In this document: one piece after another, positions 6,598-43,223 of the stretch | Position numbering within the stretch: the first letter of the stretch is position 1 | How the letters are laid out: the number at the start of each line of letters is the position of its first letter | Assembly (NCBI RefSeq): GCF_023015965.1 | Contig: NZ_JALKAN010000003.1 | Coordinates: 62,001 to 126,000 of the forward strand | Origin: Allomuricauda sp. F6463D | Lineage (GTDB): Bacteria > Bacteroidota > Bacteroidia > Flavobacteriales > Flavobacteriaceae | Direction: 5' to 3' | Length of the DNA: 64,000 nt | Translations under genes and position numbers: made by a program | Notes under the pieces: generated by a model | What the model was told of the DNA's origin: nothing | Seen by the model: the letters and a program-made list of their open reading frames with translations, nothing else | Database searches by the model: none

Positions 6598-6808
6598 TTT
6601 CTTTTTATATCCAAAATTTTGTTGGTTTTCGGTTTCAACGTACTTTTGTCCATCAAAATGAGGAAAGATTTGACTGATTGCAACCTCTTGTCCTGAATAG
6701 TTTTGGACCATAAAATGCTAAAGCAGTTTACTGAATCTGTGTTCAGTATCTCATCCGAGAAATAAACTCCTTTGGTTTTCTGTTGAATCTTTCCGTTAAA
6801 GGATAACA

Positions 6809-10289: not shown

Positions 10290-10318
10290 CCCAACAAAGT
10301 TCAAACACGTATTGATTA

Positions 10319-10421
10319 GTTATCAAGAAAGGTGGAGGGAATAGACCCTGTGAAGCCTTAGCAACCCTTGGCCCCAGAGCCAAGAAGGTGCTACATTCTA
10401 TCCCAAATGGGTATAGATAAC
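10319..10421 (+). ncRNA. SAM-I riboswitch (S-box) upstream of metY
   Basis: P1 pairs GTTATC (10319-10324) with GATAAC (10416-10421). Between them lie the conserved S-box core strings AAGAAAGGTGGAGGGA, GACCCTGTGAAGCC and AGCAACC, a P3 hairpin CTTGGC...GCCAAG and a short P4. The fold and core are those of the SAM-I class, which lowers expression when SAM binds. The expression platform is unclear: only a weak hairpin AATCGA...TCGATT (about 10425-10442) follows, without a clean T-run. The metY ATG is 113 bases downstream of P1. This non-coding stretch (10207-10534) otherwise shows nothing recognisable. Confidence 0.93.
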
Positions 10422-10534
10422 GACAATCGACATTTTTCGATTTCATTTCTTATAACTTTTTGATTTACCTACGGCCCATGCTGAAGGGTTTGACTTTTTA
10501 TTTAATCAATTTAATAAGTAAAGAAGCAAAAGTC

Positions 10535-25208: not shown

Positions 25209-25325
25209 ACACCCATATTTTGGATACCCAAAAATTGCTGTAAATGCGAAATTAGCAGTTCTTTTTTTGCTTTTCACTAAGGAGTGCCGTTTCTTTGTTG
25301 TTCAGTTCATTTATAAATTGAAAGT

Positions 25326-25461
25326 GTTATCAAGAAAGGTGGAGGGATTAGACCCTGTGAAGCCTTAGCAACCCTCGACCTCGAGAAGGTGCTACATTCT
25401 ACCCTGAACCTGACCTTTTTTGGGAAGGAAGCAGTACATCCTGCCAAATGGGAAGGATAAC
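25326..25461 (+). ncRNA. SAM-I riboswitch (S-box) upstream of the methionine synthase genes, enlarged P4
   Basis: P1 pairs GTTATC (25326-25331) with GATAAC (25456-25461). The core strings AAGAAAGGTGGAGGGA, GACCCTGTGAAGCC and AGCAACC are identical to those of the copy at 10319. P3 is shorter (CTCGA...TCGAG). P4 holds about 40 extra bases, including the small hairpins CCTT...AAGG and GCAG...CTGC. No clear terminator follows. The next gene's ATG is at 25535. The rest of the 25209-25534 non-coding stretch shows nothing else. Confidence 0.93.
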
Positions 25462-38919: not shown

Positions 38920-39154
38920 TCAAGAAGAATTTATTTATTTCAAAAATACGCTTTTAGTTGTTTTAATCCTTAGGATTTAAAAATTGGGATAGGACTTAGC
39001 TCGTCTTTTTCTTTATAATTGAGATAATTTGAATTCTTAAAAAAAACAGTGTTTCTTTAGAATAATGTGCAGTAATAATCTGGTTTTTAAAAAATATCAA
39101 AAAAAAATTAGGAAACCCTTTGTGTTTCCAATTGAATACCTAAATTAGCCGACA
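38920..39154. other. Non-coding stretch between gldA and the pheA leader
   Basis: AT-rich divergent intergenic region. It holds a minus-strand -7-like box for gldA (38941-38948) and the plus-strand promoter of the pheA leader at its right end. I see no other gene, repeat or RNA here. Confidence 0.5.
39119..39148 (+). promoter_or_regulatory. Candidate promoter of the pheA leader and operon
   Basis: TTTG (39119-39122) and TAAATTAG (39141-39148, one mismatch to TAnnTTTG) are 18 bases apart. Transcription would begin near 39155, about 12 bases before the leader peptide ATG. Confidence 0.5.
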
Positions 39155-39166
39155 ATTAACAAAGAG

Positions 39167-39238
39167 ATGACAAGCACGTATTTCTGGAACCGTTTTTATT
39201 TTTTCTTCTTTTTTGAAAGAGGAACGGGACTATTGTAG
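39167..39238 (+). CDS. Phe-rich leader peptide of the aromatic operon (attenuator)
   Basis: A 23-codon open frame from ATG 39167 to TAG 39236. It encodes seven Phe, two Tyr and one Trp; five consecutive Phe codons lie at 39200-39214 after a Phe-Tyr pair. The composition matches the product of the operon it precedes (pheA, aminotransferase, tyrA, DAHP synthase). The purine stretch AAAGAG precedes the ATG. By analogy with Phe leaders in proteobacteria, ribosome stalling at Phe codons when charged tRNA-Phe is scarce would favour the antiterminator (39225-39231 with 39267-39273). Function is inferred from layout. Confidence 0.75.
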   Translation: MTSTYFWNRFYFFFFFERGTGLL

Positions 39239-39295
39239 ATACGTTTAAAGTATAACCAATTTATAAAGTCCCGATACTATCGGGGCTTTTTTTTT
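39225..39295 (+). promoter_or_regulatory. Transcription attenuator: antiterminator and terminator of pheA
   Basis: Terminator: GTCCCGAT (39268-39275) pairs with ATCGGGGC (39279-39286) over a 3-base loop, followed by nine T. Antiterminator: CGGGACT (39225-39231), inside the last leader codons, pairs 7 of 7 with AGTCCCG (39267-39273), using the same bases as the terminator's left arm. A ribosome at the leader stop codon would cover 39225-39231 and allow termination. The T-run ends 4 bases before the pheA ATG. Confidence 0.75.
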
Positions 39296-39298
39296 GCA

Positions 39299-40126
39299 AT
39301 GGAATTAAAAATAGCCATACAGGGAATTAAAGGATCTAATCACCATCAGGTTGCTAGGGATTATTTTGGGGATAATATTGAATTGTTGGAATACAACTCT
39401 TTTGATGCGGTTGTAGATAATCTATTACAGGGTGTTGCGGATATGGGTATTATGGCGATTGAAAACTCCATTGCTGGTTCCATTATCCCTAATTACAACT
39501 TAGTGTACCATAATAATATCCACATCATAGGTGAGCATTACTTGAATATTCATCATAACCTTATGGTTTTAAAGGGTAAAACTTTTGAGGATATAAAAGA
39601 AGTGCATTCGCACCCCATGGCTTTGCTACAGTGCAAAGAATTTTTTAAGGCCCATTCCCGGATCAAACTTGTTGAAAGCGTGGATACCGCAGAGACTGCG
39701 AAAAGAATCAAAGAGGGTAATTTAAATAATATTGCTGCCATTGCTCCTAAAATGGCTGCAGAATTGTACGGATTGGATATTATTGCGGATAACATTCAGA
39801 CCATTGTGAATAATTCAACACGATTTATCATCCTTAAAAAGCAAAATAAAGTGTTGCCTAAAGAGGAAATTAATAAAGCTTCTTTAAGGTTTATAACCGA
39901 TCATAAAAGGGGAAGTTTGGCCACAGTTTTGAATGTTTTGAGTGATTGTAACATGAACCTTACCAAGATTCAATCATTACCTGTGATCGAAACGCCATGG
40001 AAGTATGCCTTTTTTGTTGATGTTACTTTTGATAAATATGAGCAATTTTCCAAAACAAAATCTTTGTTGCAGATCATGGCGGAAGATTTTAGGGTTTTGG
40101 GTGAATATAAAAAAGCATTATTATAA
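39299..40126 (+). CDS. pheA: Prephenate dehydratase
   Basis: A 275-residue monofunctional prephenate dehydratase making phenylpyruvate. Seen: IAIQGIKGSNHHQVA at the N-terminus, MAIENSIAGSI, the substrate motif NNSTRFIIL, and a C-terminal ACT domain with SLATVLNVLSDCNMNLTKIQSLP and WKYAFFVDV that should bind Phe for feedback inhibition. No chorismate mutase is fused; that activity is on the DAHP synthase three genes downstream. It starts directly after the attenuator T-run. Its stop overlaps the next ATG by one base (TAATG). Confidence 0.95.
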   Translation: MELKIAIQGIKGSNHHQVARDYFGDNIELLEYNSFDAVVDNLLQGVADMGIMAIENSIAGSIIPNYNLVYHNNIHIIGEHYLNIHHNLMVLKGKTFEDIKEVHSHPMALLQCKEFFKAHSRIKLVESVDTAETAKRIKEGNLNNIAAIAPKMAAELYGLDIIADNIQTIVNNSTRFIILKKQNKVLPKEEINKASLRFITDHKRGSLATVLNVLSDCNMNLTKIQSLPVIETPWKYAFFVDVTFDKYEQFSKTKSLLQIMAEDFRVLGEYKKALL

Positions 40127-41271: not shown

Positions 41272-42138
41272 ATGAAATTAGTAATCATAGGAGTTGGATT
41301 GATAGGAGGTTCCTTTGCCAAAGACGTAAAAAGGCTGCACCCAAAATCGGAAATTATAGGTGTGGACAAAAACGATTCCCATCTAAATAAAGCCATGGAA
41401 CTCCAAGTTATAGATAAAAAAGGAGGGTATGCAGATTTAGAAACTGCCGATATGGTCTATGTTGGTATACCGGTAAATGTGCTAATGAGCGAACTGCCCA
41501 AAATTTTGGATGCAGTCGGGGATGAAACCGTGGTAATGGATGCAGGTTCCACCAAACGTTTAATTTGCGAACAAGTGGAGGACCATCCTAAACGAAGAAA
41601 TTTTATGGCTTGCCATCCTATCGCGGGTACAGAATTTTCTGGACCAACCGCAGCTTTCGAAGGATTGTACACGGATAAGACCATGATTATTTGTGAAGTA
41701 GAAAAAACAGCTTTCAAATTACAAGAAAGAGCTTTGAGCATTTTTCAAGACATTGGAATGCGTATACGGTACATGAATCCAAAAGCGCACGATAAGCATA
41801 TTGCCTATGTATCTCATTTATCACATATCAGCTCTTTTATGTTGGGAAAAACGGTTATTGAAAAAGAAAAGAATGAGCGCGATATTTTTGACATGGCTGG
41901 GAGTGGTTTTGAAAGCACAGTGAGATTGGCAAAAAGTTCACCCGATATGTGGACTCCAATTTTTGAACAGAACAAGGATAACGTTGTGGAAACGTTGGAA
42001 GAATACATTCAGAACCTAACCACGTTCAAACAATTGATTATGGACAACGATTTTGAGAATGTCCACCAAGAGATGAGTAATACCAATAAAATAAAACAAA
42101 TATTAAAAGGAATACCACTGACAAAAAATAGAGGGTAA
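41272..42138 (+). CDS. tyrA: Prephenate dehydrogenase
   Basis: A 288-residue NAD(P)-dependent dehydrogenase giving 4-hydroxyphenylpyruvate. The dinucleotide site GVGLIGGSFAKD, the VGIPVNVL and DAGSTKRLI segments, substrate block FMACHPIAGTEFSGPTAAFEGLY and HDKHIAYVSHLSHISSFML are characteristic. There is no C-terminal ACT domain. It lies within the tightly packed Phe/Tyr operon, with 2 bases to the next gene. Confidence 0.95.
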   Translation: MKLVIIGVGLIGGSFAKDVKRLHPKSEIIGVDKNDSHLNKAMELQVIDKKGGYADLETADMVYVGIPVNVLMSELPKILDAVGDETVVMDAGSTKRLICEQVEDHPKRRNFMACHPIAGTEFSGPTAAFEGLYTDKTMIICEVEKTAFKLQERALSIFQDIGMRIRYMNPKAHDKHIAYVSHLSHISSFMLGKTVIEKEKNERDIFDMAGSGFESTVRLAKSSPDMWTPIFEQNKDNVVETLEEYIQNLTTFKQLIMDNDFENVHQEMSNTNKIKQILKGIPLTKNRG

Positions 42139-42140
42139 TT

Positions 42141-43223
42141 ATGGAAAACAAAAAGGAAATGAGAAAATGGTTGGATGATATGAATCTGGATCATCCATTG
42201 GTCGTAGCCGGTCCGTGCAGTGCGGAAACTGAGGATCAGGTGTTAAGAATAGCCCATGATTTAAAAGATACCGATGTAAGCTATTACCGTGCCGGAATTT
42301 GGAAACCAAGAACGCGTCCAGGTAATTTTGAAGGAGTAGGAGCCATCGGATTAAAGTGGTTGCAAAAGGTAAAAGAAGAAACAGGTCTTAAAACCGCTAC
42401 CGAAGTTGCTAATAGAGCACATGTGGACCTCGCTTTGGAACATGATATTGATTTATTATGGATTGGCGCAAGATCTACGGTCAGTCCATTTATCGTCCAA
42501 GAAATCGCAGATGCCTTAGAAGGAACAGATAAGATTGTTTTGGTGAAAAATCCGGTAAACCCAGACCTTTCCTTATGGTTGGGTGCGGTAGAGCGTTTAA
42601 ACTCTGCTAATATTGATAAATTAGGGGTAATTCATAGAGGTTTCTCTACTTATGAAAAAACCAAATACCGTAATATCCCAGAATGGCAATTGGCTATTGA
42701 GTTACAAACACGATTTCCTGATTTACCCATAATAAATGATCCAAGTCATATTACAGGAAAACGAGATATGGTTTTTGATGTGTCGCAAACAGCATTGGAT
42801 TTGAATTTTGATGGGTTGATGATTGAAACACATTATGACCCGGACAATGCATGGAGTGATGCCTCGCAACAGGTAACACCTAAAACATTGGTTCAGATCA
42901 TGAAAGATTTGCGTATTAGAAAAGAGACTGATGACGAGGCCGAATACAAGAATGATTTAAGTAACCTTAGAGCTCAAATTGATGTCTTGGATAATCAATT
43001 GGTTGATCTTTTAGGTAAAAGAATGAAGGTTTCAGATGGAATAGGAAAGTTGAAAAAACAAAAGAACGTAGCAGTACTTCAAAGTAATCGTTGGAACGCT
43101 ATCTTGGGCAATATGATCTTGGAAGGTGAAGAAAGAGGGTTGAGCGAGGAATTTGTTTTGAAAATGTTCAAGGCAATTCATCAAGAATCCATCAACCACC
43201 AAGAAAAAATAATAAACGCATAG
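42141..43223 (+). CDS. Bifunctional DAHP synthase / chorismate mutase
   Basis: A 360-residue protein with two modules. Residues about 10-265 are a type I-beta 3-deoxy-7-phosphoheptulonate synthase (VVAGPCSAETEDQ, AGIWKPRTRPGNFEGVG, LGVIHRGFSTY, INDPSHITGKRD). Residues about 275-355 are an AroQ-type chorismate mutase (LRAQIDVLDNQLVDLLGKRM, VSDGIGKLKKQ, FKAIHQESINHQ). The C-terminal position of the mutase is the arrangement known from Bacteroidetes such as Porphyromonas; Bacillus has it at the N-terminus. The mutase feeds prephenate to PheA and TyrA of the same operon and may confer feedback control on the synthase. Confidence 0.93.
   Translation: MENKKEMRKWLDDMNLDHPLVVAGPCSAETEDQVLRIAHDLKDTDVSYYRAGIWKPRTRPGNFEGVGAIGLKWLQKVKEETGLKTATEVANRAHVDLALEHDIDLLWIGARSTVSPFIVQEIADALEGTDKIVLVKNPVNPDLSLWLGAVERLNSANIDKLGVIHRGFSTYEKTKYRNIPEWQLAIELQTRFPDLPIINDPSHITGKRDMVFDVSQTALDLNFDGLMIETHYDPDNAWSDASQQVTPKTLVQIMKDLRIRKETDDEAEYKNDLSNLRAQIDVLDNQLVDLLGKRMKVSDGIGKLKKQKNVAVLQSNRWNAILGNMILEGEERGLSEEFVLKMFKAIHQESINHQEKIINA

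What the first reader, a model, noticed from the sequence alone, without database searches (positions are those of the whole stretch)
39155..39298. Phe/Tyr leader-peptide attenuator ahead of the aromatic operon
Seen: a 23-codon ORF with seven Phe codons (five in a row) and two Tyr, an intrinsic terminator whose T-run ends 4 bases before the pheA ATG, and a 7-bp antiterminator (39225-39231 with 39267-39273) that competes with the terminator and overlaps the end of the leader. Established: this is the logic of pheA and trp attenuation in enteric bacteria. Inference: the flavobacterial operon pheA-aminotransferase-tyrA-DAHP synthase is controlled by charged tRNA-Phe. Transcription-translation coupling and attenuation are little studied in Bacteroidetes.
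Basis: partly seen in the sequence, partly recalled or inferred. Interest (0 to 1): 0.75.

Follow-up and report, generated by a model that had tools for sequence, protein, structure and literature searches.

The report
Phe/Tyr leader-peptide attenuator before pheA
A tiny gene rich in phenylalanine and tyrosine codons sits before an aromatic amino acid operon and very probably lets the cell switch the operon on when these amino acids run short; the same device, with changing but still matching RNA sequences, is found widely in the Bacteroidia, so it is a well-supported member of a known kind rather than a new kind.

Summary
The window holds a 23-codon ORF (39167-39238, MTSTYFWNRFYFFFFFERGTGLL) with 7 Phe, 2 Tyr and 1 Trp codon, a terminator whose T-run ends 3 bases before the pheA ATG, and a competing antiterminator. 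It is conserved: 79 of 80 close relatives carry it (the miss is a truncated contig), as do 29 of 45 PheA-bearing genomes of the class outside the family (14 of 22 families). The same criterion met 125 of 150 PheA-like ORFs and 0 of 304 other ORFs.
The antiterminator strand keeps about 10 nt from the last aromatic codon while the stop codon moves. The same genome has His, Trp and Ile/Val leaders.
Prior art exists: Rfam's Bacteroid-trp, and a Flavobacterium transcriptome paper naming a structured element before pheA and leader-peptide attenuation before amino acid operons (PMC9723704 passages). So: a new, well-supported member of a known kind. No expression data were available.

The parts
39119..39122 (+). 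putative -33 promoter element (TTTG)
   Evidence: position read from the sequence; inference from the flavobacterial promoter type, recalled
39141..39148 (+). putative -7 promoter box TAAATTAG; implies a transcript start near 39153 and a 5' UTR of about 14 nt
   Evidence: TTAGCC-like block conserved in 55 upstream regions; box end to ATG is 17-18 nt in 60 of the 68 leaders with a recognised box, 80 examined, 12 without; box type TAnnTTTG at -12 to -5 from PMC9723704 passages
39167..39238 (+). leader peptide ORF, 23 codons, MTSTYFWNRFYFFFFFERGTGLL, stop TAG
39176..39196 (+). region 1: leader codons 4-10; outer part 39176-39183 and inner part 39184-39196 pair with region 2
39194..39214 (+). regulatory codons 10-16 (F Y F F F F F)
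39221..39244 (+). region 2: pairs with region 1 (1:2) or region 3 (2:3); overlaps the leader's end and stop codon; antiterminator core 39225-39231
39265..39275 (+). region 3: 5' arm of the terminator; 39267-39273 pairs with 39225-39231 in the antiterminator
39279..39295 (+). region 4: 3' arm of the terminator and run of nine T
39299..40126 (+). pheA, prephenate dehydratase (first gene of the regulated operon)
   Evidence: Pfam PDT, 199 bits
40126..41268 (+). aminotransferase class I/II
   Evidence: Pfam Aminotran_1_2
41272..42138 (+). tyrA, prephenate dehydrogenase
   Evidence: Pfam PDH_N and PDH_C
42141..43223 (+). DAHP synthase fused to a C-terminal chorismate mutase
   Evidence: Pfam DAHP_synth_1 and CM_2

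Best explanation
It is a classical ribosome-mediated transcription attenuator that senses charged tRNA-Phe and tRNA-Tyr. RNA polymerase transcribes a very short 5' UTR and the leader ORF, and a ribosome starts on the leader (inferred). If Phe or Tyr is scarce the ribosome stalls on codons 5-16, covers region 1 and leaves region 2 free; region 2 pairs with region 3 as soon as that is made, the terminator cannot form, and the operon pheA - aminotransferase - tyrA - DAHP synthase/chorismate mutase is transcribed. If both are plentiful the ribosome reaches the stop codon and covers region 2, the terminator (3:4) forms, and transcription stops just before pheA. Without a ribosome the 1:2 helix can hold region 2 and so favour termination (the weakest step). 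Shown here: the ORF, its conservation, the three alternative helices, their compensatory change and the spacing. Inferred: translation, stalling, coupling, termination.
For: Leader in 79 of 80 close relatives, the miss a truncated contig; in 29 of 45 PheA-bearing same-class genomes outside the family. Amino-acid-level selection on the aromatic block: 78 synonymous and 18 non-synonymous departures, against 9:72 for random single changes. 2:3 own duplex -14.4 against -11.3 kcal/mol with swapped arms, own better in 41 of 47; 1:2 -11.6 against -8.9, own better in 41 of 47; in the 21 non-canonical leaders 20 and 18 of 21. 1:2 pairs in 89.9% of cells of a 55-sequence alignment, slid versions 38-57%. 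Folding with region 4 not yet made: 2:3 above 0.5 in 46 of 47 with a ribosome at the last aromatic codon and in 0 of 47 with one at the stop (9-nt footprint). The antiterminator strand starts 5-13 nt (median 10; one outlier at 18) after the last aromatic codon, while the end of the stop codon lies 6-42 nt after it. His, Trp and Ile/Val leaders in the same genome.
Against: No expression or ribosome data. With a 12-nt downstream footprint the stalled-state 2:3 exceeds 0.5 in only 23 of 47. Equilibrium folding of the full leader favours the terminator in most states tested, also stalled (probability 0.73 in the window, 0.45-0.98 in five relatives), so antitermination must be kinetic. Without a ribosome 2:3 still exceeds 0.5 in 38 of 47 (0.80 in the window), so the protector role of 1:2 is uncertain. 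2:3 paired worse than swapped in L044, L045, L060, L076, L097 and L148, 1:2 in L060, L076, L111, L115, L130 and L146. For 2:3 on the alignment, one slid version (-3) equals or exceeds the real one in pairs and cells changed on both sides (7 and 21 against 7 and 15), though not in percentage paired (29.7 against 80.2). 16 of 45 class genomes with PheA lack the leader by the criterion, and 54 of 299 family genomes have no match to the RNA model. Own-versus-swapped tests do not correct for shared ancestry.
Confidence: 0.9

Rival explanations
1. Translational attenuation: the 3:4 hairpin, whose T-run abuts the pheA start, mainly blocks initiation of pheA rather than ending transcription.
For: The T-run ends 3 bases before the pheA ATG here, and in 58 of 80 leaders (window included) it ends within 5 nt of the pheA match start.
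Against: In 22 of 80 the T-run ends 17-98 nt upstream of the pheA match start, yet the U-run persists: six T columns are invariant in the 55 aligned sequences.
Confidence: 0.05
2. Nascent-peptide arrest: the peptide itself stalls the ribosome in response to a free small molecule.
For: The peptide is well conserved among the 96 canonical leaders (YFWNGFYFYFFF).
Against: Across the class only aromatic richness is kept, not a fixed peptide; the conserved non-aromatic codons N-G and the G-L-L/F end are explained by pairing.
Confidence: 0.03
3. A protein- or tRNA-binding leader (T-box or riboswitch type) with an incidental ORF.
For: A terminator and an antiterminator are present, as in those systems.
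Against: No Rfam family reaches its gathering score at this place; the ORF is under amino-acid-level selection; the antiterminator spacing follows the aromatic codons.
Confidence: 0.02

Closest known systems
Enterobacterial pheA / pheST leader (Rfam RF01859 Phe_leader)
   Same: Phe-rich leader peptide, alternative 1:2 / 2:3 / 3:4 helices (recalled), terminator before a Phe gene. It is the best-scoring family at a permissive threshold (27.3 bits, E 0.0076).
   Different: Far below the gathering score of 55 bits; Phe and Tyr codons mixed; controls a Phe and Tyr operon with DAHP synthase; region 2 overlaps the leader's own end and stop codon; predicted 5' UTR of about 14 nt. How far the last two differ from the enteric leader is recalled, not tested.
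Bacteroid-trp (Rfam RF01692, listed in Weinberg et al. 2010, PMC2864571 passages)
   Same: Leader-peptide attenuator in the same phylum; this genome's trpE leader matches it (59.4 bits against a gathering score of 49).
   Different: A Trp leader; the pheA leader does not match it.
Structured 5' element upstream of pheA in Flavobacterium psychrophilum (PMC9723704 passages)
   Same: Very likely the same element: the main text names 5' elements before pheA and hisG that are present in other Flavobacteriaceae genera, without Rfam hits, and 'strong clues' for leader-peptide attenuation before amino acid operons.
   Different: The passages seen give no leader peptide sequence, helices, covariation or spread beyond the family; the supplement could not be read here.

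Membership tests
Ribosome-mediated (leader-peptide) transcription attenuator | Short ORF rich in codons for the operon's product amino acid | tested here: met
   9 Phe/Tyr of 23 codons; conserved in relatives
Ribosome-mediated (leader-peptide) transcription attenuator | ORF kept at the amino acid level (translated) | tested here: met
   78 synonymous against 18 non-synonymous departures in the aromatic block; indirect evidence of translation
Ribosome-mediated (leader-peptide) transcription attenuator | Intrinsic terminator (3:4) before the first structural gene | tested here: met
Ribosome-mediated (leader-peptide) transcription attenuator | Mutually exclusive antiterminator (2:3) with compensatory change | tested here: met
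Ribosome-mediated (leader-peptide) transcription attenuator | 1:2 pause/protector helix | tested here: inconclusive
   Pairing and own-versus-swapped tests support the helix; its power to prevent 2:3 without a ribosome is doubtful; pausing not testable
Ribosome-mediated (leader-peptide) transcription attenuator | Read-through rises on starvation for the cognate amino acid | not testable with these tools
   No expression data
Rfam RF01859 Phe_leader | Score at or above the gathering score (55 bits) | tested here: not met
   27.3 bits
Rfam RF01692 Bacteroid-trp | Score at or above the gathering score (49 bits) | tested here: not met
   No match to the pheA leader
T-box or metabolite riboswitch | Match to a known aptamer or T-box model at this place | tested here: not met
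   Only SAM (2) and SAM-II (1) reach the gathering score in the window, all elsewhere

The most novel reading that the evidence does not exclude
Ribosome-mediated attenuation is an ancestral, general way of controlling amino acid operons (Phe/Tyr, His, Trp, Ile/Val) in the class Bacteroidia, working without Shine-Dalgarno initiation on a 5' UTR of about 14 nt, with region 2 read in different reading frames in different families but held at a fixed distance from the regulatory codons; some lineages carry two such attenuators in tandem. This would make tight transcription-translation coupling in the group directly testable.
Probability: 0.6. Interest if true: 0.62.

Novelty: new member of a known kind. 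Interest (0 to 1): 0.47.

Why it matters
Attenuation by a translating ribosome works only if the ribosome keeps pace with RNA polymerase. Ribosomes of Bacteroidia fail to recognise Shine-Dalgarno sequences (PMC9976891, start of abstract in a search listing), and F. johnsoniae mRNA leaders average 33 nt (PMC6847099 passages). A device found in at least 14 families of the class outside the window's own would be natural evidence for coupling there and gives a ready reporter for it. The spacing of about 10 nt from the last aromatic codon to the antiterminator is a testable estimate of the ribosome's downstream edge. The alignment and model also give a way to annotate a leader peptide and RNA that Rfam does not yet cover.

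Tried and rejected
Weak AT hairpin between stop and terminator as an independent pause hairpin: hardly stronger than shuffles (-1.4 against -0.9 kcal/mol, p 0.014). The post-stop AT block is better explained as the outer part of the 1:2 helix (own better in 37 of 47, p 0.0001; 15 of 21 in the non-canonical leaders, p 0.019). The consensus fold also shows a 6-pair hairpin inside the Phe codons; I gave it no role.

Codon-level covariation between codon 7 and codon 23 was tabulated and shows no clear pattern; no statistic was computed. Full-length equilibrium folding with ribosome masks, tried on 6 leaders, did not separate the states well; folding before region 4 is made did (47 leaders). A first look for leaders at hisG, trpE and ilvD missed them (+ strand only, and too strict for His); one search found them.

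Weak covariance-model hits cannot all be trusted: of 26 loci newly fetched, 22 had pheA and a leader and 4 (L124, L133, L136, L137) had no pheA; all 30 loci fetched had pheA and a leader. The model also misses real ones: G174 had no match but has a leader (L176). So the model tallies (245 of 299 family genomes, 72 of 395 phylum genomes) are only indicative, and the PheA-anchored counts are used instead.

Rows dropped: L050 (truncated). 142 leaders reduced to 50 at under 0.85 similarity, and L144, L145 and L147 left out of the 47-leader tests because the automatic choice of leader or terminator was unsure (L145 and L147 have two leader ORFs). In one search the canonical leaders were required to have Phe at codon 12, which dropped 1 of the 97 distinct 23-codon leaders. 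Outside the class only the 21 fetched of 59 same-phylum PheA genomes were examined; itself took 80 handles between G300 and G384, without five that I knew to be of the window's family.

The natural control was first printed as 125 of 509 ORFs (which took in the his loci L208-L231 as well); the recount without them and with PheA-like ORFs identified by blastp is 125 of 150 against 0 of 304. An Rfam scan of the leaderless class loci found no match at the gathering score.

Full report
WHAT IS THERE. The leader ORF runs 39167-39238 and encodes MTSTYFWNRFYFFFFFERGTGLL. The terminator is 39265-39289 with its T-run ending at 39295, and pheA starts at 39299. CGGGACT (39225-39231) matches AGTCCCG (39267-39273). 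Folded alone, the antiterminator segment (39217-39280) reaches -18.4 kcal/mol (z -4.2, 0 of 200 shuffles as good) and the terminator segment (39250-39298) -15.0 (z -4.1, 0 of 200). Downstream lie prephenate dehydratase, an aminotransferase, prephenate dehydrogenase and a DAHP synthase fused to chorismate mutase. A Phe- and Tyr-rich leader therefore fits an operon that makes both.

CONSERVATION NEARBY. The leader was found in 79 of these 80; the miss, L050, is cut by the contig end but shows the leader's 3' part. Among 96 distinct 23-codon leaders, Phe 10, 14 and 15 are invariant (codon 12 was required to be Phe, which dropped 1 of 97); Tyr 5, 11 and 13 are Tyr in 93, 88 and 94 and codon 7 is Trp in 81. 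In the aromatic block there are 78 synonymous and 18 non-synonymous departures from consensus, 13 of the 18 to another aromatic residue; random single changes would give 9:72. Seven other codons show 68 and 246.

CONSERVATION FAR AWAY. Anchoring on PheA rather than on the RNA model, 198 genomes of the class were searched and 52 had PheA: 6 of the window's family, 1 of the same order but another family, 45 of other families. Of these 45, 29 have an aromatic-run ORF followed by a terminator before pheA, in 14 of 22 families; 16 do not. One of the 16 (L172) looks like a leader by eye, and one (L178) has less than 300 nt upstream. The one same-order genome outside the family (L203) lacks it. Outside the class, 2 of 21 examined PheA loci have it (L143, L148) and 19 (L149-L167) do not; these 21 are the fetched ones among 59 same-phylum genomes with PheA. 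Controls: 0 of 3450 shuffles for the stricter version; for the relaxed version, 125 of 150 PheA-like ORFs and 0 of 304 other ORFs of at least 150 codons in loci L002-L167. That the window's family is Flavobacteriaceae follows from the named relatives; that 'same class' means Bacteroidia is recalled from GTDB.

THE THREE HELICES. 3:4 (terminator) has 10 pairs in the consensus fold, 9 of which vary and are mostly kept. 2:3 (antiterminator), as drawn from the window, has 15 pairs and 80.2% of cells paired, with 2, 2, 2, 18 and 3 of 500 shuffles as high on the five measures; a version slid by -3 equals or exceeds it in changes on both sides but has only 29.7% of cells paired. The window itself uses a shifted register (CTGGAACCGTTTT with GGAACGGGACTAT, -10.1 kcal/mol). 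This can explain why the codons W-N-G and G-L-L/F are conserved. An outer extension pairs codons 4-6 with the bases around and just after the stop (own better in 37 of 47).

COMPENSATORY EVOLUTION. For 47 leaders under 0.85 similarity, each region 2 was paired with its own and with every other region 3: own -14.4, swapped -11.3 kcal/mol, own better in 41 of 47 (Wilcoxon p 4.6e-8). For 1:2 the values are -11.6, -8.9, 41 of 47 (p 1.6e-7). Among the 21 non-canonical leaders (locus L114 and up; some are still of the window's family) own is better in 20 of 21 (p 2e-5) and 18 of 21 (p 9e-4). These p-values ignore shared ancestry. Examples of 2:3: CGAGACCT/AGGTCTCG (L128), CGAGACTT/AAGTCTCG (L129), GCAGGGCT/AGTCCTGC with one G-U (L072), AGCCGGGATT/AATCCCGGCT (L116). 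In the canonical leaders the core is read in frame as xCG GGA CTx TTx stop (..GLL/F), while in family f3 (for example L115) nearly the same bases are read CGG GAC TGA (..RD stop), so the RNA sequence is held independently of the peptide.

A SPACING RULE. The first paired base of region 2 lies 5-13 nt after the last aromatic codon (median 10; one case of 18), whereas the end of the stop codon lies 6-42 nt after it (the script prints the spacing less one). This is about where the leading edge of a ribosome stalled on the last aromatic codon would be (recalled footprint size). Masking a ribosome there and stopping the RNA before region 4 lets 2:3 exceed 0.5 in 46 of 47; masking at the stop codon gives 0 of 47; no ribosome gives 38 of 47. 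With a 12-nt instead of a 9-nt footprint the stalled figure falls to 23 of 47, which shows how sensitive this model is.

INITIATION. A -7-like box is found 17-18 nt before the leader ATG in 60 of the 68 leaders where a box was recognised (80 examined, 12 without). With the box at -12 to -5 (PMC9723704 passages) the 5' UTR here would be about 14 nt. The base at -3 is A in 46, G in 28, C in 4 and T in 2 of 80; the window has G. A at -3 is a positive determinant in F. johnsoniae (PMC6847099 passages).

NOT ALONE IN THE GENOME. Upstream of hisG, trpE and ilvD the same genome has MRNKNTHHHFYTCPQAR, MINRTVNIWWWKNLRRTS and MKRNNIVIVEVIIVPISG, each followed by a terminator-like hairpin. Similar peptides are found in 20 of 20, 20 of 20 and 19 of 20 fetched loci, the own genome included (one ilv locus could not be oriented). 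The fetched loci are the best 20 of 37, 36 and 30 matching genomes among 59, nearly all of the same genus. The trp leader is Rfam's Bacteroid-trp. The pairings in these three leaders were not tested.

WHAT IS KNOWN. [quoted passage not shown] Weinberg et al. 2010 list Bacteroid-trp (PMC2864571 passages). The 2021 F. [quoted passage not shown] The 2020 B. thetaiotaomicron map mentions short ORFs reminiscent of leader peptides (PMC7366714 passages). In my searches (open-access library, listings and passages only) I saw no description of the pheA leader's peptide, helices or class-wide spread. A 2026 paper assigns runaway transcription to six phyla, Bacteroidota not among them (PMC13323073 passages).

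VERDICT. The mechanism is about as sure as sequence alone can make it. The finding is a new, richly supported member of a known kind, with prior hints for this very element. What is added here is the 1:2 helix, the compensatory evolution, the independence of reading frame, the spacing rule and the class-wide spread.

Noticed in passing
L208 (hisG), L209 reverse strand (trpE), L211 reverse strand (ilvD), same genome as the window: Leader peptides MRNKNTHHHFYTCPQAR, MINRTVNIWWWKNLRRTS and MKRNNIVIVEVIIVPISG, each followed by a terminator-like hairpin; the trp one is Rfam RF01692.
   Followed up: partly
L145 and L186 (family f9), L147 (family f5), upstream of pheA: Two successive Phe/Tyr-rich leader ORFs before pheA, apparently tandem attenuators.
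   Followed up: partly
L143 (G361, family f17) and L148 (G312, family f20): Genomes outside the class with a leader and a PheA closer to the window's (41-44% identity against 31-38% for the 19 other same-phylum loci); possible horizontal transfer of the whole unit.
   Followed up: no
window 39203-39205: Leader codon 13 is Phe here but Tyr in 94 of 96 distinct canonical leaders, so this strain's leader leans more to Phe.
   Followed up: no
window 10317-10423, 25324-25434, 6654-6731 (+): Two SAM riboswitches and one SAM-II riboswitch.
   Followed up: no
window 42141-43223: DAHP synthase fused to a C-terminal type II chorismate mutase.
   Followed up: no
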